From positions 1-21,067 of the IMG/VR virus record IMGVR_UViG_3300028423_000472: a stretch of 21,067 bases of DNA, one strand, 5' to 3'. A program made the position numbers and the translations under genes. Under the pieces are notes generated by a model. It was not told where the DNA came from. It saw only the letters and a program-made list of their open reading frames with translations, and searched no databases. The stretch is from a virus. Positions 1,209 through 20,305 of the stretch are shown here, piece after piece. How positions within the stretch are numbered: the first letter of the stretch is position 1; the number at the start of each line of letters is the position of its first letter.

Positions 1209-2048
1209 TTAATTCCAATCTATTTTTTCTATTGTAAATGGATATTCTGCATCTCGATAAAATTTCTTACGCTGTGTTAAATGTCGTTTTGCGTATTTAC
1301 AAGTGCTAGTAACATCCCATATCTGTACAAAATCTTTGTCTTTTGCCTTTCTTACGCCTCTGCCTATACTCTGAATAACTCTAACAAAACTTTTACCCGG
1401 CTCTAACAACACAAGATTAAAGATGCGAGGAATGTTAAGTCCAACCGCAGCAACACCATAGGTTGCAATAATCACTTCGTTGGTTCCTTCATGAATAGTA
1501 TCGTATGTGTCTTTTCTGTCTTTTACTTTTACTGACCCGCTGACAAATGTACTGTTGGGTATTAGTTCTGTTAGTGCTTCGCCTGCTGATATCCTGTCAA
1601 CTAATATCAGTGTGTTGCCTGACTGCTTGACAGTGTTCATCATTTTGGCAATGTATTCAATTCGTTCTTTGTTGGTAACAAGATATTTCAATTCTTCTTG
1701 ATAACCCGAATGTACCTGAGTATCAATCAACTGACAGATGTTAACGTGACAGTTTGACAATACTCCTTTGTCCTGCAATTCTTTTGCACTGACCTGGCCA
1801 ACAACAGGACCAAGACTTGCAAGTATGCTTTGAAACTCTGCATCTTCTTTGGGCACTGTGCCAGTTAATCCCCAGCGTATCGGAGCATTGCGAAGATTCT
1901 GTGTAAGCAGTTTCTTTAATACTTCAGCCTTGGCCATGTGGCAATTAGACACTACAGCATTATTTGCAATGTAATTATGATCCTGTTCTATATGTAGATT
2001 GTATGTTTCCTGAGGTTTTTCAATTTCTTTTTTTCTAACTAGTTTCAT
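1209..2048 (-). CDS. uvsW: UvsW helicase, C-terminal half, fused to intein C-terminal half
   Basis: Residues 1-35 are a split-intein C-terminal piece: block F is the stretch ETYNLHIEQDHNYIANN and block G is AVVSN, followed by Cys36 as the +1 extein residue. The extein then continues CHMAKAE, completing the DECH box, followed by an SF2 helicase C-terminal domain with GLTGT (motif III-like), ILVD, ATYGVAAVGLNIP (motif V) and QSIGRGVRK (motif VI). UvsW of T4 is an RNA:DNA and recombination-intermediate helicase. I chose the ATG at 2048 and not an in-frame TTG at 2084 because AGGA lies 6 nt upstream of the ATG and because the resulting 35-residue piece matches the size of other phage split-intein C-halves. 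The start overlaps the endonuclease gene by 14 nt. Trans-splicing with the 2963-3994 product would give about 487 residues, close to T4 UvsW. The residue before the final Asn is Ser, not the usual His. Confidence 0.88.
   Translation of the reverse strand: MKLVRKKEIEKPQETYNLHIEQDHNYIANNAVVSNCHMAKAEVLKKLLTQNLRNAPIRWGLTGTVPKEDAEFQSILASLGPVVGQVSAKELQDKGVLSNCHVNICQLIDTQVHSGYQEELKYLVTNKERIEYIAKMMNTVKQSGNTLILVDRISAGEALTELIPNSTFVSGSVKVKDRKDTYDTIHEGTNEVIIATYGVAAVGLNIPRIFNLVLLEPGKSFVRVIQSIGRGVRKAKDKDFVQIWDVTSTCKYAKRHLTQRKKFYRDAEYPFTIEKIDWN
1944..2048 (-). other. Split intein, C-terminal half (IntC) of UvsW
   Basis: Thirty-five codons at the 5' end of the uvsW C-terminal gene. Block F (YNLHIEQDHNYIAN) and block G (VVSN) are visible. 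The C-terminal Asn is encoded by 1946-1944 and the +1 nucleophile is Cys. The penultimate residue is Ser where most inteins have His, so Asn cyclisation must be assisted differently; variants of this kind exist. It has no endonuclease domain of its own. Confidence 0.85.
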
Positions 2049-2949
2049 AAAGTTTCCTAATTTTATTTTGTGTTTTAGTGTCAAACTCTGTTAAATTTGT
2101 AGGTATTGATTTAGATAGAAAATAATCTTTATCTGCTAATAAAAAAGTATATCCATTTTCGGTACACCATTCTTTAGCAGCAGAAATTTTTGCTTGTGTC
2201 TTTGCATTATTAACCAGTTCTTGAGGTTTAACTTCTATTACTATTTTAGTTTCATGATTTACAAAATCTATAATGTAGATACAATCTCGATTATCAAATT
2301 TGTAAGGAATTCTTAATGTCTCGTATTCTGCACTATTGTCAAAATAATGATACAACGCTTCCCAGGAACTTCTATATTTTTTATTTTTGTAAAAAGAATC
2401 CCAATGAGTATTTCTATTATTAGAGTTAGGTGTAAATTCACCTAACAATATTTTTTCTTTCATTAACTCACTGCGATGCTGTTTTCCTTCATCTGAATGC
2501 TTCCTGCCAAACATTCCGTTTTTATCACCGCGATTGGCATCTCCTATCTTTTTTTTAGTATCTTCTGCACAAGAATGCGAGTAAGGATAATTGCCCTTCA
2601 TTCCTTTGTTCCAAGGAATGCCTCCGACATGATTAAGATTTTGTTTTATTTTTTCTTTGTGTTCCTTTTGACAATTGATTCCGCCTTTAACAGATATTAA
2701 AGATCTACACTCTTGTTCTGCAGTTGCTCTACTCGGTTCATCTGTACTATAGATTCTATCAAAGTTTTTCTTCCAAACATTGTCTCCATTCATTACTCGT
2801 CTTTTACACAACCGCACTTCTTGTTCTGAGTTGAGAATTAATCCATTTGATAAAATAACTTCTTTGCCAGTTATCTTTTCTGCTTGCAATTGTTGATTGT
2901 GTTCTTTTAAAATTCTATTAAATCTTTCTGTGTCAAACTGCTTTGCCAT
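2035..2949 (-). CDS. Free-standing homing endonuclease (NUMOD3-like repeats plus PD-(D/E)XK-type nuclease)
   Basis: This 304-residue protein has two NUMOD3-like DNA-binding repeats: GGIPWNKGMKG at about 109-119 and KKIGDANRGDKNGMFGRKHS at about 133-152. A nuclease-like core follows: YRSSWEALYHYF (192-203), IPYKF, then IIDFVNHETKIVIEVKP (226-242), which gives a D...ExK arrangement. The tail WCTENGYTFLLADKDYF fits the last strand and helix of such folds (PD-(D/E)XK or Vsr-like). It sits exactly between the two halves of uvsW, as in the 'fractured gene' loci described by Dassa and co-workers (2009), where a Vsr-like endonuclease separates split-intein halves. It probably cuts intact uvsW alleles and spreads the locus. 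The ATG at 2949 has a strong AAAGGAG Shine-Dalgarno held in a hairpin loop. Its 3' end overlaps the downstream uvsW half by 14 nt. Confidence 0.82.
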   Translation of the reverse strand: MAKQFDTERFNRILKEHNQQLQAEKITGKEVILSNGLILNSEQEVRLCKRRVMNGDNVWKKNFDRIYSTDEPSRATAEQECRSLISVKGGINCQKEHKEKIKQNLNHVGGIPWNKGMKGNYPYSHSCAEDTKKKIGDANRGDKNGMFGRKHSDEGKQHRSELMKEKILLGEFTPNSNNRNTHWDSFYKNKKYRSSWEALYHYFDNSAEYETLRIPYKFDNRDCIYIIDFVNHETKIVIEVKPQELVNNAKTQAKISAAKEWCTENGYTFLLADKDYFLSKSIPTNLTEFDTKTQNKIRKLYETS

Positions 2950-2981
2950 AAATACATCTCCTTTAGCCGTATGTATTTATG
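2947..2981 (-). promoter_or_regulatory. Hairpin occluding the homing endonuclease start, with late promoter in its 5' arm
   Basis: A perfect 11-bp inverted repeat: CATAAATACAT at 2981-2971 and ATGTATTTATG at 2957-2947 (minus-strand sense), with a 13-nt loop at 2970-2958. The loop holds the Shine-Dalgarno AAAGGAG and the 3' arm ends in the endonuclease ATG. In transcripts reading through from uvsW the start codon would be paired. The 5' arm includes CATAAATA, one base from the T4 late promoter TATAAATA. A transcript started there would begin near 2968, lack the 5' arm and expose the start. The same logic is known for T4 intron endonucleases such as I-TevI. Confidence 0.75.
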
Positions 2982-3994
2982 TCAATAATCTCTAAATCTT
3001 CTGTTAATTCGTCTGCTCTAACCCATCCTTTGTTAGTTAGGAATTTGTGGTTAGCAGTGACTTTAGTAGTAATGCCGTTGTCAAATTCTAATTCTAACAT
3101 TTTTTCACTTTCACTGTGTGTTAGATTTTTATGGACTTTAATAATGGTATCTTCTTTGTATTGTTTTGTTTTTTCGCAAAAATTAATTACTTTGTCGCCT
3201 GCTTTCAAATCTTTAATGGGTGTTTTGCCTTGAGGCGTAGAAATAAGAGTATCGCCGTTAAAGCACTCATCTACTATAACTGACGAAATATCTTCTAGCA
3301 TTTCTGCCAATGACAATACTTCTTTACCGTCTTTGTTTCTTTTGTCGAGAATGTTCAGACTTTGCCAAGTGCATATAGTATGTGTTCGACCCAGTTCTTT
3401 TCTGTCACCGAAATACACACCGACATCAAGTCCGCAGTTGATATAGTCTTCTTCTGTCTGTTCAACAAGACTTTTGTTTGGAACAATTACAACAGTTCTA
3501 CCATGCTGTTCGCATAGATGGCTCAGTGTAGCAGTGGTGATTGTTTTGCCTGCACCTGTTGCAATTTCCTGTAGACTCTGCGGATTAGCAATAAAGTTGT
3601 TAACTGCTGTGACCTGATAGTCACGCAGCATAATTAACTCACCTTCATAAGGATGGCCTTTGGGCCAACACACACCTTGATCCGCCCAATATCGTTCGGT
3701 AACAGGTTCAAAGTTTAAATCAAACTTTCGTCTATGATCTTCAATGTCACCTATTCTTACTCGATTCTTTTCTAATTCTTCTATGATAATATCCAGATGA
3801 TTTAGAAATCCAGAACCGCCGATGCCAAAGAATCCTACCTTGCCATCCCATCTGCCCAGCTTGTACTGCGGAGTATGTTTAGCATAAGCCAGTTCATATT
3901 TTAGACGATTAGAAATTTTTCGTCTTACATCAACTGCTAAACCTTCTAATTTTATGTTAACTTCATCTTGAATTACTAATTTACACTCTGTCAT
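2963..3994 (-). CDS. uvsW: UvsW helicase, N-terminal half, fused to intein N-terminal half
   Basis: Residues 1-243 are the N-terminal region and first RecA-like domain of an SF2 helicase. The N-terminal DNA-binding-type region (about 1-115) includes YKLGRWDGKVGFF. The Q-type motif is LRDYQ at 123-127, Walker A is ATGAGKT at 145-151, and the sequence VIVDE at 239-243 is the first half of Walker B. Residue 244 (Cys) begins an intein N-half of 100 residues: block A is CFNGDTLISTPQGKTPIKDL and block B is ITTKVTANHKFLTNKGW. The stop follows at 2963, just before the endonuclease Shine-Dalgarno. The product cannot be an active helicase alone because motifs III-VI are encoded at 1209-2048. It overlaps the upstream gene by ATGA. 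Transcription is probably driven from the promoter near 5.2 kb. Confidence 0.9.
   Translation of the reverse strand: MTECKLVIQDEVNIKLEGLAVDVRRKISNRLKYELAYAKHTPQYKLGRWDGKVGFFGIGGSGFLNHLDIIIEELEKNRVRIGDIEDHRRKFDLNFEPVTERYWADQGVCWPKGHPYEGELIMLRDYQVTAVNNFIANPQSLQEIATGAGKTITTATLSHLCEQHGRTVVIVPNKSLVEQTEEDYINCGLDVGVYFGDRKELGRTHTICTWQSLNILDKRNKDGKEVLSLAEMLEDISSVIVDECFNGDTLISTPQGKTPIKDLKAGDKVINFCEKTKQYKEDTIIKVHKNLTHSESEKMLELEFDNGITTKVTANHKFLTNKGWVRADELTEDLEIIDINTYG
2966..3265 (-). other. Split intein, N-terminal half (IntN) of UvsW
   Basis: One hundred codons, from the TGC for Cys1 (3265-3263) to the last codon before the stop. Block A starts CFNGDTLIS and block B contains the TxxH signature as TANH. 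With Cys1 and Cys+1 this is an ordinary class 1 mechanism. The extein junction is VDE|C, within the helicase DExH box. The half-intein length matches known phage split inteins and lacks an endonuclease domain. Confidence 0.88.
2974..2981 (-). promoter_or_regulatory. Putative T4-type late promoter for the homing endonuclease
   Basis: CATAAATA followed by C on the minus strand matches the T4 late consensus TATAAATA at 7 of 8 positions. The expected start about 6 nt downstream (near 2968) leaves the whole Shine-Dalgarno in the transcript. It lies inside the last codons of the uvsW N-terminal gene. Confidence 0.55.
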
Positions 3995-5181
3995 ATATAA
4001 TAATTTGAATACCTTCTAAATGGGCTTAAATCGCGATCTCTAGTAATATTGAGATCACAGTTGTTCACCAAATATGCATCGACAAATCGATTCATCATGC
4101 CGCCGAAATTTATTGCAGTAATAGGCTTGAAGTCAGAGTCAAGCAGCAGCTTAGGGAGTTTATTAGTATCAATATACACAACCTTAGTATTGCTGTCAAC
4201 CCAATTATTCAAGCCTTTTTGTTTTATAAAACGATTAAATTCAGTATCTCCGTCTTGACGAAACAGAACACTCTGTTCTTCATTTGAAACAATATTTTTA
4301 AGTTCGCTCCATATTTCGAATATTTGATCTTCTGCGTTTTTGTAGTCTAGCAACACTACCATAGGAAATCTATCTAAACTATAAACAGCTTCAACTGTCT
4401 GCTGCATAGTCCACTTGTCAGGACTACAGAGAAACTCGCAGGATTCTCTGTTTACAATTTCGCCAACAAGAGAGTCGTCATTTACAGTGTCAAAATTAAC
4501 AAGTCCATAACGACGATGACGATCAATTGTTTGATAATAGTTTAGGTTGTCAGGAATTTTATTTTTTACTTTAAAAGTTTCGCCATTCAAAACACAGTCG
4601 ATATGCTCACTTGGATTTTCTTTTATTGTTTTGATCTTTTTATAAAATTCTACAACGTCGTTGTCAATTTCAAAATTGCGATCTTGAAATGTCTCTACAA
4701 CGTCGTGTACTATGCTTTCTTTAAAAACAAAATAATGCTCATGTGAGCCGCGCTGATGGTGATAGCTGCGACGATGTTTGCTAGTAATCTTTTCCAACGC
4801 AGCAATTGTTTTTTTGTTAAACGGAAATCGTATTTTTAGATACTTTGTTTTGTCTTTTGATTCTTTAAGGGTGTTGGGCAAAAAATCTACAACAGTAACA
4901 GTTTTACTGCGATCAATCTCTCTGAGAGGCAAACGAATATTTTCAAGTTTGCTTGGGAGATTTTCGACTCCGTTGTTTTCAAACTGTGCTTCGTAGGCAA
5001 GAAGCTTTTCTTTCACAAGAGCATACTGCCTGTCAGTAAGTGCTGTGCCTCTATAAATCTGCCTTGCTATGCTGTTTAAAATAGCAGCATCGCTAGGGTC
5101 GATTTTAAATCCATAATCAGCAGATTTTAATCCTGTTAAAATCTCAAGACAGTCTTCTACGGTGTGTGCTAAATTATTCAT
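3991..5181 (-). CDS. Uncharacterised phage protein upstream of uvsW
   Basis: This 396-residue soluble protein has no motif I can name with confidence. Residues about 114-165 (KYLKIRFPFNKKTIAALEKI followed by an H/R-rich turn and HYFVFKES) look loosely like the HARP-type small domain found beside some SF2 helicases; this is only an impression. The C-terminal third (MVVLLDYKNAEDQIFEIWSE, KVVYIDTNKLPKLLL) has a strand-helix rhythm but no Walker or DExH motif. The gene ends in an ATGA overlap with the uvsW N-terminal half, so the two are probably translated together and may act together. It is the first gene after the glycan island and has its own strong candidate promoter. No Shine-Dalgarno is visible before its ATG. 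Confidence 0.68.
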   Translation of the reverse strand: MNNLAHTVEDCLEILTGLKSADYGFKIDPSDAAILNSIARQIYRGTALTDRQYALVKEKLLAYEAQFENNGVENLPSKLENIRLPLREIDRSKTVTVVDFLPNTLKESKDKTKYLKIRFPFNKKTIAALEKITSKHRRSYHHQRGSHEHYFVFKESIVHDVVETFQDRNFEIDNDVVEFYKKIKTIKENPSEHIDCVLNGETFKVKNKIPDNLNYYQTIDRHRRYGLVNFDTVNDDSLVGEIVNRESCEFLCSPDKWTMQQTVEAVYSLDRFPMVVLLDYKNAEDQIFEIWSELKNIVSNEEQSVLFRQDGDTEFNRFIKQKGLNNWVDSNTKVVYIDTNKLPKLLLDSDFKPITAINFGGMMNRFVDAYLVNNCDLNITRDRDLSPFRRYSNYYI

Positions 5182-5187
5182 AACTAC

Positions 5188-5216
5188 AATATAACGTATT
5201 ATAGTTTGTTTGTCAA
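5188..5216 (-). promoter_or_regulatory. Near-consensus sigma70-type promoter for the uvsW block
   Basis: Minus-strand TTGACA (5216-5211), a 17-nt spacer and TATATT (5193-5188). The -35 is perfect, the -10 matches five of six, and the spacing is ideal. It spans the end of the preceding glycan gene and the 17-nt gap before the 396-residue gene. The start predicted 7 nt after the -10 falls on the A of the ATG at 5181, so the mRNA could be leaderless. A short palindrome, TATAA-TACG-TTATA, overlaps the spacer and -10. Confidence 0.6.
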
Positions 5217-6071
5217 GCGGTTAAGTGGGATACCTTTGGCAATTTCTTTCACAGTAAACTCTGTCCAGGCATAGTCATTCAGCCACTGTGTTCTGTCTGG
5301 CATTGCAGGATTTTCGATATCTTTTAGATTGGCAATGTCATTGGCTACATCATAGGCAAGGCTGTGACTGCTGACAAAACTAGGAACACCGTTGAGAACG
5401 CTGTGTATACCAGGATTTGAACTCCAGTTTACTGTTGCCCATATGTCATTAAACTCCATGTCAAAGTCGTCGTATGTGTCACGCAGTTTCTTCGGTTCTT
5501 GTCTGTAGACGTGTTTAAGACTGCGTTCGATATGTTCTAGTCTACATCTAGGATGTGGTCTAAATATAATAGGACGATCAGTGTGTTTGCGTATCTCGTC
5601 GTATGTTTGTAAAAACCAATTGCTCATACGGGGTTGTGCTTGCCACTGTAGGCTGCGATCATGCTGACCAGCTATGAGAATATATTCGCCTTGTGTTCGC
5701 CATGGAGTTAATTCTATGCCCATGTCAATACTGCGATCACTGTTATTGTTTATATCTCCAAAGTAAGCATCACGGTTTATACCGTTTACGCCTACCTTCC
5801 ACGTTTTGCCTCGATCGATTCCTCCGACTTCGAGTATAATAACTGGCTTTTTTGAACGTCGACAATAATCCCAGACAGCACGGTTTCGAGCCATACGGCC
5901 GTGAAATAAAACGCTCCAAATAACATGAACATCGGAATGTTCAAGATCATTAGAATCATAAACAACGCCGCCGCTGTTGATAACGCTATGAGCAAAAGCA
6001 TCAAACACAGAGCGAGAATTAAGCGCACCATATTCTCTCCACAGTTTAAATTTTTTGCCAGTAAGGCTCAT
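5199..6071 (-). CDS. KpsC/KpsS-like glycosyltransferase (capsule synthesis family)
   Basis: This 290-residue protein has the C-terminal signatures of the capsule polysaccharide synthesis family, whose members KpsC and KpsS are GT-B-type Kdo transferases. These are IIFRPHPRC at about 168-176 and NWSSNPGIHSVLNGVPSFVS at about 215-234. An earlier strand is PVIILEVGG (76-84). It lacks a signal peptide or membrane segment and should be cytoplasmic. It overlaps the upstream GT-A gene by 26 nt and is the last gene of the island. Two further members of the same family lie at 6903-7829 and 7826-8632, probably products of duplication. The sugar transferred is unknown; Kdo is suggested by family and by the KdsA-like gene at the left edge. 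Confidence 0.62.
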   Translation of the reverse strand: MSLTGKKFKLWREYGALNSRSVFDAFAHSVINSGGVVYDSNDLEHSDVHVIWSVLFHGRMARNRAVWDYCRRSKKPVIILEVGGIDRGKTWKVGVNGINRDAYFGDINNNSDRSIDMGIELTPWRTQGEYILIAGQHDRSLQWQAQPRMSNWFLQTYDEIRKHTDRPIIFRPHPRCRLEHIERSLKHVYRQEPKKLRDTYDDFDMEFNDIWATVNWSSNPGIHSVLNGVPSFVSSHSLAYDVANDIANLKDIENPAMPDRTQWLNDYAWTEFTVKEIAKGIPLNRLTNKL

Positions 6072-6906
6072 TTCTATGACCCATTAAATCTTTGCGTTTG
6101 CTTGCACCTTCGAATTTTCTATCACCTTTCATATGATCCATCCACTGACCTAGTTTAGAATTAATAAGAGGGTGGCCGCCGCCGCCGGTTTTAGCAGTGT
6201 TGGTAAGATATATTTCTGCTGAATAATCCAGTACATTAGGCGCTGTCTGTTTCATGTTGTTTAGAATATGTCCAAATACAAAACTGTCGTGCCATTCTTC
6301 TAATGTGAAAATACCTCGATCTGCATCTTCGTACATTCTTTCAAATTCCAATAAAAATTCTTGACACACGGGATCTTTTAGATTCAAACCATAAAATCCA
6401 CATTCTGGCCAAGACTGTGATCCCCCGCCTCTGCCTACATATGTGATCCAGCTGGTAGTAGGCAACAGTTCTGCAAAATCTTCATAACTCCAATCTGAAT
6501 GAATTATTGAATCAGCATCCATCCATACACACCAATCCTTACTACGTTTACACGCATCAAATACAGCATATACTTTATTAGCAAATCTCACAGCATCCCA
6601 TTTAAAAGCTTTGTGGTAATCTCTAGGTCTGCGCCTTTTGATTTCGTCAGGTGGTGTGCCATTGGCTTTGGGATCGTTTTTCCATTTTTCTTTGAATTGA
6701 TTTAGTTTTGTTAACTGTGTTTCTGCATTTAAAATTTCTATACGAGTCGGATCAGGATTCTCTGGTTTACAGTCCTCTGCATAAACAATTAATTTGATTC
6801 TCTTATCTACGTGTCTAGCAAAACTGTCTAAAAAGTTTTTGCCATAAACTCCATAATGTTTACTGTGAAAAGTAGTTACTACTGTTATGTGTTTTGGTTC
6901 TGTCAT
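6046..6906 (-). CDS. GT-A type glycosyltransferase
   Basis: This protein of 286 residues begins ITVVTTFHSKHYGVYGKNFL, the first strand and loop of a GT-A fold. The metal/nucleotide-sugar motif is DAD at 130-132 in the context WCVWMDADSIIH. Downstream, CGFYGLNLKDP and EEWHDSFVFGHIL resemble acceptor-site segments of GT-A enzymes. It has no signal peptide or membrane anchor. I chose the ATG at 6906, which overlaps the preceding stop as ATGA like other genes here; the longer reading starts at TTG 6918. It sits between two KpsC/KpsS-like genes and is probably part of the same glycan pathway. Donor and acceptor are unknown. Confidence 0.72.
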   Translation of the reverse strand: MTEPKHITVVTTFHSKHYGVYGKNFLDSFARHVDKRIKLIVYAEDCKPENPDPTRIEILNAETQLTKLNQFKEKWKNDPKANGTPPDEIKRRRPRDYHKAFKWDAVRFANKVYAVFDACKRSKDWCVWMDADSIIHSDWSYEDFAELLPTTSWITYVGRGGGSQSWPECGFYGLNLKDPVCQEFLLEFERMYEDADRGIFTLEEWHDSFVFGHILNNMKQTAPNVLDYSAEIYLTNTAKTGGGGHPLINSKLGQWMDHMKGDRKFEGASKRKDLMGHRNEPYWQKI

Positions 6907-17731: not shown

Positions 17732-17739
17732 TATTTATT
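17732..17739 (-). promoter_or_regulatory. Weak late-promoter-like sequence before the 924-residue gene
   Basis: AATAAATA followed by C on the minus strand matches TATAAATA at 7 of 8 positions, 4 nt before an ATG that has no Shine-Dalgarno. It overlaps the terL stop. In AT-rich DNA such a match is not rare. Confidence 0.3.
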
Positions 17740-20305
17740 AAATTGAACTGCTTATAAAGATAGGCATAGGCTGTTCATAATCATCCTCTTGTTCTATTTG
17801 CGTAAATGTGTCGTATACTCTAGGATCCCAGTCTTTTAACACTGTCATCATTCTCAAAGCCAACAGTGTTGCTGAAACCAAATCGTCTGTTGCTCCTACC
17901 TTTGCTTCGAAACTGCTGCCTGTGGCAATAAACCCTTTGAGTTCAGATACCAATGGTTTTGATCGTATGGTAATTTTATCATTTTCTATCATGGTTTTTA
18001 ATCTACTACAGGCTGTGATTTTACTGCCGTGAGTAGTGTTAAATCCTCTTCTAAACTTTCTTACGTGTCCTTTTCTAATAGGCTCACTTACAAAAAGTCC
18101 TGGTATATTTTCTTCACCAAAGTCTTGGATAACAATAAGTGCAGCTTCACCGATCCCATTGTTTTCTACGCTCCAGTAAATACTTTGTGGATTTTTTGTC
18201 TGTTCAGCTATGTAATTGCAGATATCTCTTAATACTCGTATCTGCCCTGGTATTGCAGTTGTATTGTGTTGCCATTCTGCTACCTGTTCATACGAAGGCA
18301 ATTCATAAACTTCTATAGCAGCATGATCACCACCTGTGCCCATTGAAGGATCCAGTGCTACTACATATGAATATTTTGAACTGGGCTTTTTGTACCAGCG
18401 TGTTTGACCCATGTTTAGCAAAGGCGACTCGCCTTCCATTACTGCTAATTTAAGACTACTAATCAGTGTCTCGTCGAATACTAGGAATTCACAGCCGTAT
18501 TCACGACGAAACTTTTCTTCTCCGATTCGACCAATCTCAGCTTTTTGCCATTCTTCGTCCCTGTCCGGATGTTCGTCCCAAGTAGCTCTGAATCCATGGA
18601 AGCCGTTACGACCTACATCTTGTTCGTTACCATGTTCATCAAATTTGTCTTCTGCTTGCTTCCAAATTGTCGCAAATGTGTCTTCGTCTGAGTTAGGTGT
18701 AGAAGTAAGAATTGCTCTACCACCTGTTGCCAGTGTAGGCGAAATGGAAGTCCAGAACTCTTCTGCAATGTTAGGTTGTACGAATGCAAATTCGTCTGCA
18801 TATAAAAGAGATATTGACATACCACGTCCAGTGTTGCCTGTTGTAGTTTGGCTTACAATTCTGCTGCCGTTTTCAAATTCAATTGAACCTTTGTTGTACG
18901 AAGTAACACCTGCTCGAATAAAGTCAGGACACATTTCGTATACATAGCGTATACGCTGCATGATTTCCTGTGCACCTGTATACTTGTGTGCAGCAATAAG
19001 AATAGTTTGATCCGGATGAAACATTGCATACCAAGCAAGATAGATAGCAGCACAGGTTGTATTGTGTGTTGGAATCATAGACTTTCCGCAAAGAAACAAA
19101 TGTTCATCATTATCTACTTGAATACACCTAACTGGCACTGATTCTACTTCTGTAATATCAGTAATATAATGCCGAGTATTTTTTTGATGACCTTTGCAGT
19201 TATCTTGATATTGTGCTTTTCGTGATAACTTAAATACTTTATATTTTGTTGTTGCAAACCCAATGGTGTAATATTTTTGTCCGTTAATGACCTTGTAATT
19301 ACATCTATTTTTAATACCTAGCGATGATAGTAATTCTCTAACTTGTTCTACTAATTTATATTTTTTTTGATAAAATTCGCATCTTCCGCTTCTTTTATCA
19401 ATAGAACCGTCTGTATCCATTAATCCCTGCAATAACTCTAATCTTTGGTTTACTGATCCTCTTAGATAAATTTCAGGAATATGTTTATTTTTTAAAAGAT
19501 TATTTTTGTTTAACTTTGTTTTTAAACCATAAATAGTTCGATTTTCACTATTTATACTGGCTCCGTTAGGAAATGCTTTTGATATTTCAAAGCCTCGATT
19601 AATGATTTCATTAATTATTTCTTTATTATCTATTATAGATTGTGTATATCTTGCGCCTGCACTTTCGCCGTCGCCTAGCCACAATCCTAAAACATAAGGA
19701 TCAATAGGTAATTCAACATCTTGTGTTTTTATTTCTTCGGCAGCTTGAATATAAACACAGGTATTTTTAGATTCTATGTATTCTTTTATTTCCTCTGTTG
19801 TTTTAGTCTTAACACCAGTGCGCCAAAATCTCGAGTTAACATTCCACAAGTGTTCTGCATCTGCTATTATAGTTTCACTGTTGTCGAATGTAACTTTATA
19901 GCACTTGTGATTGTGCATTACATCTGTTGCAAAGGTAACAGTTGTTTCATTACCGTCGGGACCTAAGATTTTGTCACCTACTTGAATATCTCCCATAGTA
20001 GTCCAACTAGTTTTAGTAGGAATAGGAGTATCAAGAGCCAAGGCCTTTCCTGTCTGTCTTGGCATCATGTTTATATTAAATCGATGGTTATGGTAACTGT
20101 ACATCAACCGTTCTTGATATTCGTAAGGTTCGAACAGCAGTTTGCCTTTTACAGGATGTTGAATATAAGCAAAGTTTTTAGCAAAATGTAAATACCCGTC
20201 ATCAGGATTCATGCACTTTACCAGATCCTCTACCTGCTGCTCAGTATATGTTTCCTGTTGGTTTGCCTTTTTAATTAAGACGCCATCTAGTGATTTTGTT
20301 GACAT
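17738..20305 (-). CDS. terL: Terminase large subunit (gp17-like) with an in-frame intein
   Basis: This 855-residue precursor would be about 527 residues after removal of the intein (residues 88-415). The exteins have the gp17 layout. Walker A is RQTGK|TT, split by the intein after Lys87; Walker B is LLYADEF at 500-506; the coupling motif is LTSTPN at 533-538. The RNase H-like nuclease has Asp652 in VVALDPSMGTGGD, Glu714 in VENNG, and a later Asp in GATDDLVSATLLAL. This motor cuts concatemeric DNA and pumps it into the prohead. Until the intein splices, the P-loop is broken and the motor cannot bind ATP. A hairpin terminator separates it from the upstream gene. Only a weak Shine-Dalgarno (GGTAAG) precedes the ATG at 20305. 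Confidence 0.95.
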   Translation of the reverse strand: MSTKSLDGVLIKKANQQETYTEQQVEDLVKCMNPDDGYLHFAKNFAYIQHPVKGKLLFEPYEYQERLMYSYHNHRFNINMMPRQTGKALALDTPIPTKTSWTTMGDIQVGDKILGPDGNETTVTFATDVMHNHKCYKVTFDNSETIIADAEHLWNVNSRFWRTGVKTKTTEEIKEYIESKNTCVYIQAAEEIKTQDVELPIDPYVLGLWLGDGESAGARYTQSIIDNKEIINEIINRGFEISKAFPNGASINSENRTIYGLKTKLNKNNLLKNKHIPEIYLRGSVNQRLELLQGLMDTDGSIDKRSGRCEFYQKKYKLVEQVRELLSSLGIKNRCNYKVINGQKYYTIGFATTKYKVFKLSRKAQYQDNCKGHQKNTRHYITDITEVESVPVRCIQVDNDEHLFLCGKSMIPTHNTTCAAIYLAWYAMFHPDQTILIAAHKYTGAQEIMQRIRYVYEMCPDFIRAGVTSYNKGSIEFENGSRIVSQTTTGNTGRGMSISLLYADEFAFVQPNIAEEFWTSISPTLATGGRAILTSTPNSDEDTFATIWKQAEDKFDEHGNEQDVGRNGFHGFRATWDEHPDRDEEWQKAEIGRIGEEKFRREYGCEFLVFDETLISSLKLAVMEGESPLLNMGQTRWYKKPSSKYSYVVALDPSMGTGGDHAAIEVYELPSYEQVAEWQHNTTAIPGQIRVLRDICNYIAEQTKNPQSIYWSVENNGIGEAALIVIQDFGEENIPGLFVSEPIRKGHVRKFRRGFNTTHGSKITACSRLKTMIENDKITIRSKPLVSELKGFIATGSSFEAKVGATDDLVSATLLALRMMTVLKDWDPRVYDTFTQIEQEDDYEQPMPIFISSSI
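19061..20044 (-). mobile_element. Class 3 intein with LAGLIDADG endonuclease in TerL
   Basis: The 328-residue insert runs from Ala88 to Asn415 of the precursor, with Thr as +1. Position 1 is Ala, not Cys or Ser, so the usual first nucleophile is absent. The class 3 triad is present: Trp154 in block B (EHLW), Cys394 in block F (VRCIQVD) and Thr413 in block G (PTHN). In class 3 inteins (Tori and Perler) the block F Cys makes the first attack. Two dodecapeptide motifs, VLGLWLGDGE (205-214) and LLQGLMDTDGS (291-301), show a LAGLIDADG homing endonuclease. It sits in the P-loop, a usual intein site. No frameshift or stop is present, so it is probably functional. Confidence 0.9.

What the first reader, a model, noticed from the sequence alone, without database searches (positions are those of the whole stretch)
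1209..3994. Fractured uvsW: a helicase rebuilt by a split intein across a free-standing homing endonuclease gene
Seen: one gene ends VIVDE then CFNGDTLIS (intein block A, B) and stops. A second gene begins with blocks F and G, ending AVVSN, followed by CHMAK. Joining the exteins gives an unbroken DECH box and a helicase of about 487 residues, near T4 UvsW length. An unrelated endonuclease gene lies between. Known: this layout was described as 'fractured genes' for phage gp41, NrdA, NrdJ and IMPDH in metagenomes. I do not recall UvsW among those cases, so the insertion in a recombination helicase at Walker B may be new. Inference: both halves are inert until spliced, tying UvsW activity to two translation events.
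Basis: partly seen in the sequence, partly recalled or inferred. Interest (0 to 1): 0.9.

Follow-up and report, generated by a model that had tools for sequence, protein, structure and literature searches.

The report
Mobile split intein breaks phage UvsW
A virus of bacteria carries its DNA-repair helicase gene in two pieces, each tagged with half of a self-splicing protein element and separated by a DNA-cutting enzyme gene, and comparison with about 160 related stretches of viral DNA indicates that this whole cassette jumps between viruses as one selfish unit.

Summary
On the minus strand, a UvsW helicase is encoded as 243 aa + 100-aa IntN (stop at 2963), a 304-aa free-standing endonuclease (2949-2035), then 35-aa IntC + 244 aa (ATG 2048, not the TTG at 2084). 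Both intein ends pass NCBI's curated intein cut-offs, and the joined 487-aa exteins align across the junction to T4 UvsW. This is a "fractured gene". It is not unique: the same site is broken the same way in isolate phages Salmonella S16 and STP4-a and Proteus PM2 and in dozens of viral contigs, and PHROGs already holds both halves, so it is a new member of a known kind. I found no paper describing it, but Dassa 2009 was not readable here. New evidence: the cassette moves as a unit. Two phages with uvsW exteins at dS 1.6 share a 1316/1316 identical cassette; another pair with 98% identical exteins has cassettes at dS 2. Exchange tracts end within about 30 nt of the site, and the +1 Cys replaces the Val of empty alleles. 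Some relatives have uvsW broken twice, into three pieces. Trans-splicing itself was not tested.

The parts
3266..3994 (-). UvsW N-extein, 243 aa, ending VIVDE (Walker B); its Walker A site (GAGKT, residues 147-151) is uninterrupted
   Evidence: PF04851 ResIII at residues 121-244, 9e-14; phrog_16 helicase and phrog_16259
2966..3265 (-). IntN, 100 aa (Cys1; block B TANH), followed by a stop codon at 2963-2965
   Evidence: TIGR01445 35.1 bits, cut-off 24.5; Cys1 and TxxH invariant in the 10 aligned loci
2957..2965 (-). Shine-Dalgarno-like AAAGGAGAT of the endonuclease gene, overlapping the stop codon of the N-half gene
   Evidence: direct reading of the sequence
2035..2949 (-). Free-standing homing-type endonuclease, 304 aa: NUMOD3 (129-157) and TnsA-like PD-(D/E)XK nuclease domain (210-271; E197, D228, E239-x-K241)
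   Evidence: PF07460 and PF08722 (27 and 31 of 35 members); invariant E/D/E and near-invariant K; AlphaFold2 pLDDT 85.9
1944..2048 (-). IntC, 35 aa, ATG at 2048, ending AVVSN (blocks F and G); 14-nt overlap with the endonuclease gene
   Evidence: TIGR01443 21.2 bits, cut-off 15.6; terminal Asn and +1 Cys invariant in the 10 aligned loci
1212..1943 (-). UvsW C-extein, 244 aa, starting CHMAK (stop at 1209-1211)
   Evidence: PF00271 Helicase_C 3e-8; phrog_9690 and phrog_16; 2OCA alignment

Best explanation
A fractured uvsW. Three translated products are made: UvsW-N-IntN, a PD-(D/E)XK homing-type endonuclease, and IntC-UvsW-C. The intein halves associate and trans-splice by the class 1 route (Cys1 thioester, transfer to Cys+1, Asn cyclisation) to give a 487-aa helicase. 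The endonuclease cuts intein-less or differently occupied uvsW near the Walker B codons, and repair copies the whole IntN-endonuclease-IntC block with up to about 30 nt of flanking exon, including the +1 Cys codon. Shown by sequence: anatomy, conserved catalytic residues, purifying selection, transfer as a block with short flanking tracts, and loss, decay and refusion states. Inferred: trans-splicing, cleavage specificity, inactivity of unspliced halves.
For: Intein profiles pass curated cut-offs on both halves. Exteins align across the junction to T4 UvsW. Cys1, TxxH, terminal Asn and +1 Cys are invariant. Same site in S16 and PM2: intein about 60% identical, exteins 27-28%. L087/L120: cassette 1316/1316 identical, extein dS 1.62; L005/L112: 1308/1316, extein dS 1.68. 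Reverse case L098/L112: exteins 98% aa (dS 0.12), flanks near-identical, cassette dS 2.0, divergence bounded at -28 and +15 nt. 74 empty alleles carry Val (DEVH), all occupied ones Cys (DECH); L079/L122 is a near-identical empty/occupied pair with differences crowded at the site. The extein tree needs 7 gains or losses, all forced by starred branches. Endonuclease dN/dS 0.09-0.24.
Against: No biochemical test of splicing or cleavage. The penultimate intein residue is Ser or Ala in these phages (His in S16 and PM2), which other active inteins tolerate but which was not tested here. The AlphaFold model of the N half was poor (pLDDT 47), so the assembled Hint fold was not modelled. No PDB match of the endonuclease model is significant (best E 0.03). 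The contigs are metagenomic, though key alleles recur in separate datasets.
Confidence: 0.92

Rival explanations
1. The two chains work as a non-covalent two-subunit helicase, as reported for a phage ribonucleotide reductase broken by a homing endonuclease gene, and the intein remnants are dead tails.
For: A precedent of a gene in pieces that keeps function as two distinct peptides is cited in PMC10448857.
Against: All splicing residues are invariant across diverged loci; IntN and IntC are under purifying selection (dN/dS about 0.04-0.16 in most pairs); contiguous in-frame versions at the same site must splice or carry a 130-aa insert next to Walker B.
Confidence: 0.04
2. Pseudogene or assembly artefact.
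For: The window is a 21-kb virus record that may be a fragment.
Against: Same arrangement in isolate genomes and 57 viral contigs besides; intact frames; dN/dS well below 1.
Confidence: 0.01
3. The split is a regulatory device: splicing delays or conditions UvsW activity, for example to late infection or to a redox state.
For: Insertion in a catalytic motif and two separate chains make it possible in principle.
Against: Patchy presence and absence among near-identical phages and replacement by diverged cassettes look like a selfish element rather than a conserved switch.
Confidence: 0.03

Closest known systems
Fractured genes (Dassa et al. 2009, NAR 37:2560): split inteins with a free-standing endonuclease gene in phage-like metagenomic loci
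   Same: A DNA-metabolism enzyme broken by a split intein near the usual endonuclease insertion point, with an endonuclease ORF between the halves
   Different: Host enzyme is UvsW; the endonuclease has an E-D-ExK TnsA-like core with NUMOD3, not the EDxHD/Vsr core. The paper could not be read here, so whether UvsW is among its enzymes is unknown; the layout is cited from memory and from PMC7891396.
AceL NrdHF split intein (PMC7891396)
   Same: Fractured phage gene with a free-standing endonuclease between the halves; 98-aa IntN, close to the 100 aa here
   Different: Class 3 intein, GIY-YIG endonuclease, ribonucleotide reductase beta host gene
uvsW of Salmonella phage S16 (gp114, gp114.1, gp115) and Proteus phage PM2
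   Same: Identical architecture and insertion codon, homologous endonuclease
   Different: Exteins only 27-28% identical to the window; annotated only as two 'DNA helicase' CDS and a hypothetical protein
NrdJ-1 split intein (PDB 8UBS)
   Same: The joined IntN-IntC matches it over residues 9-133, E = 3e-8
   Different: Other host gene; a distant match

Membership tests
Fractured gene (Dassa type) | Conserved enzyme gene broken in two, exteins colinear with an intact homologue | tested here: met
   Joined 487 aa aligns across the junction to T4 UvsW; 77 uninterrupted alleles at the same site
Fractured gene (Dassa type) | Both sides of the break carry complementary halves of one intein | tested here: met
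   TIGR01445 and TIGR01443 above cut-off; contiguous homologue L008
Fractured gene (Dassa type) | Free-standing endonuclease gene between the halves | tested here: met
   NUMOD3 plus PD-(D/E)XK
Class 1 split intein | Cys1, TxxH, terminal Asn, nucleophilic +1 residue | tested here: met
   Invariant columns
Class 1 split intein | Protein trans-splicing | not testable with these tools
   Needs co-expression or in vitro assay
EDxHD/Vsr homing endonuclease family | E-D-x-H-D active site | tested here: not met
   Conserved E197, D228, E239-x-K241; Pfam TnsA-like in 31 of 35 members; TnsA (prob 0.97) ranks above I-Bth0305I (prob 0.57-0.66) in Foldseek, neither significant
Homing endonuclease | Site-specific cleavage leading to copying of its gene | tested here: inconclusive
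   Transfer pattern fits; cleavage not assayed
T4 UvsW helicase | SF2 helicase colinear with UvsW across both helicase domains | tested here: met
   2OCA is the best PDB match, E = 4e-27

The most novel reading that the evidence does not exclude
uvsW is a hot spot for a mobile split-intein cassette driven by a TnsA-like PD-(D/E)XK endonuclease family not previously recognised as spreading inteins; the free-standing gene moves both intein halves as one 1.3-kb unit, and in related phages a second, atypical split intein (27-aa IntN) at Walker A makes a three-piece helicase needing two trans-splicing reactions from five consecutive genes.
Probability: 0.6. Interest if true: 0.75.

Novelty: new member of a known kind. 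Interest (0 to 1): 0.6.

Why it matters
Fractured genes raise the question whether a free-standing endonuclease still mobilises the two intein halves around it. They also supply many natural split inteins, including contiguous and split versions of one intein, for protein engineering.

Tried and rejected
EDxHD/Vsr membership of the endonuclease: rejected on motif. Structure of the N half: model too poor to use. PDB fold search of the endonuclease: no significant match. Rfam: nothing in the window. Cellular genomes: only one weak match (27% identity), so the intein appears viral. A test of one occupied clade on the extein tree did not finish; the count of 7 changes forced by starred branches is used instead. 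An exact search for the joined Walker A flanks of L098 in L112 failed, presumably because of the few differences seen in the sliding comparison, which is used instead. Literature: no held paper describes an intein in UvsW; Dassa 2009 is not held.

Full report
WHAT IS THERE. On the minus strand of the window three consecutive ORFs replace one uvsW gene. ORF 3994-2963 encodes 243 residues of an SF2 helicase up to VIVDE plus a 100-aa IntN beginning CFNGDTLIS. ORF 2949-2035 encodes a 304-aa endonuclease; its Shine-Dalgarno overlaps the preceding stop. ORF 2048-1209 encodes a 35-aa IntC ending AVVSN plus 244 helicase residues beginning CHMAK; it overlaps the endonuclease gene by 14 nt. NCBI's intein_Nterm and intein_Cterm models both pass their curated cut-offs. 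The joined 487-aa exteins match T4 UvsW (2OCA) from residue 115 to 471 across the junction, E = 4e-27; the N-terminal 114 residues lie outside that alignment.

IT IS NOT UNIQUE. PHROGs 16259 and 9690 are families of the two chimeric halves. In Salmonella phage S16 (and STP4-a and others) and Proteus phage PM2 the same three-gene arrangement breaks uvsW at the same DE|CH codons. A distant version is in Prevotella megaphage Lak-B4, L199. A scan with the IntN alignment found 209 viral-contig relatives; the 80 kept sit in uvsW at this site. After removing same-contig duplicates (near-identical contigs were not merged), the classified loci are: 59 split with full endonuclease (57 contigs plus S16 and PM2), 2 split with a broken one, 7 with an endonuclease remnant, 8 split without it, 8 contiguous in-frame mini-inteins, 3 partial, 74 empty with Val at +1, 3 empty with Cys at +1. 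The scans kept only the best 80 matches each, so these are not population frequencies.

THE CASSETTE MOVES. (1) Intein about 60% identical but exteins 27-28% identical between window and S16 or PM2. (2) L087 and L120: the 1316-nt cassette is identical at all positions while the exteins have dS 1.62; identity extends 27 nt upstream of the site and the first downstream differences are at +3 and +15. L005 and L112: 1308/1316 with extein dS 1.68; L152 and L160: 1283/1315 with saturated extein dS. These alleles come from different datasets, which makes chimaeric assembly an unlikely cause. (3) The reverse: L098 and L112 have exteins with dS 0.12 and near-identical flanks, but cassettes with dS 2.0; the divergent tract ends at -28 and +15 nt. 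(4) L079 (empty, DEVH) and L122 (occupied, DECH) have near-identical exteins with differences crowded at the site, including GTA to TGT: the +1 Cys that the intein needs appears to arrive by co-conversion. (5) L177 lacks the intein but has DECH and the upstream flank of L005-type carriers, consistent with precise loss. (6) The extein tree needs at least 7 gains or losses (quick tree). (7) Endonuclease dN/dS is 0.09-0.24 (pairs with near-saturated dS are rough).

THE ENDONUCLEASE. NUMOD3 DNA-binding motifs are followed by a TnsA-like PD-(D/E)XK domain in 31 of 35 relatives, with invariant E197, D228 and E239 and near-invariant K241. The AlphaFold2 model is confident (pLDDT 85.9). Foldseek PDB matches are not significant; TnsA and the I-Bth0305I domain are among the top rows. 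In the viral library it matches NUMOD3 and TnsA-like phage proteins. It therefore differs from the EDxHD/Vsr family that PMC12350094 attributes to the fractured-gene paper. Related endonucleases lie in or beside terminase genes of T-even phages.

MECHANISM. Best reading: trans-splicing by the class 1 route rebuilds UvsW, so the phage keeps its helicase, while the endonuclease spreads the block into uvsW copies of co-infecting phages. Splicing and cleavage are inferred, not shown. A two-subunit unspliced enzyme is unlikely because splicing residues are invariant and fused versions exist. A regulatory role has no positive evidence.

A FURTHER STEP IN RELATIVES. In L004, L120, L141, L155, L171 and L186 a second split intein interrupts the same gene at Walker A (GK|T), with its own endonuclease ORF; in L004 the five ORFs are 2454-2987, 3004-4116, 4106-5092, 5106-6017 and 6001-6840. 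Its IntN is 27 aa in L004, like the atypical split intein AceL-TerL with 25 aa (PMC11766414). Nine further contigs (L098-L103, L157, L161, L180) are split at both sites with an endonuclease missing or fused to its IntN. L098 and L112 differ by presence and absence of this 1.6-kb insert with 99-100% identical flanks. Such a helicase would need two trans-splicing reactions from three chains. I found no description of this, but the library is partial.

VERDICT. Observation confirmed; the kind is known (fractured genes), and uvsW cases already sit unrecognised in databases. The value lies in the evidence for whole-cassette mobility and the twice-fractured relatives. Whether Dassa et al. 2009 already list UvsW could not be checked.

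Noticed in passing
L004:2454-6840; also L120, L141, L155, L171, L186: uvsW broken twice: a Walker A split intein (27-aa IntN in L004) with its own endonuclease, plus the Walker B cassette, giving three helicase pieces and two endonuclease genes in a row.
   Followed up: partly
L098:2675-4336 (also L099, L101, L102, L103, L180): The Walker A IntN has lost its stop codon and reads in frame into the endonuclease, a 553-aa fusion.
   Followed up: no
window 17738-20305: Terminase large subunit carries a contiguous LAGLIDADG intein after GK of its Walker A; the first intein residue appears to be Ala, not Cys.
   Followed up: partly
L093 (Escherichia phage HY03, 1929-4781): T-even terminase large subunit in two ORFs with a related TnsA-like endonuclease between them; no intein profile match on the two halves.
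   Followed up: partly
L199 (Prevotella phage Lak-B4): UvsW-like helicase broken at the same Walker B site by a distant split intein with a similar endonuclease; endonuclease frames are interrupted under code 11, perhaps because of a recoded stop.
   Followed up: partly
L166:3153-5309: A contiguous LAGLIDADG intein at the uvsW Walker A site in a locus that also has the Walker B split intein.
   Followed up: no
window 3991-5181: A conserved ORF of unknown function overlaps the start of uvsW and keeps that position in L004, L008 and L086; no Pfam match.
   Followed up: no
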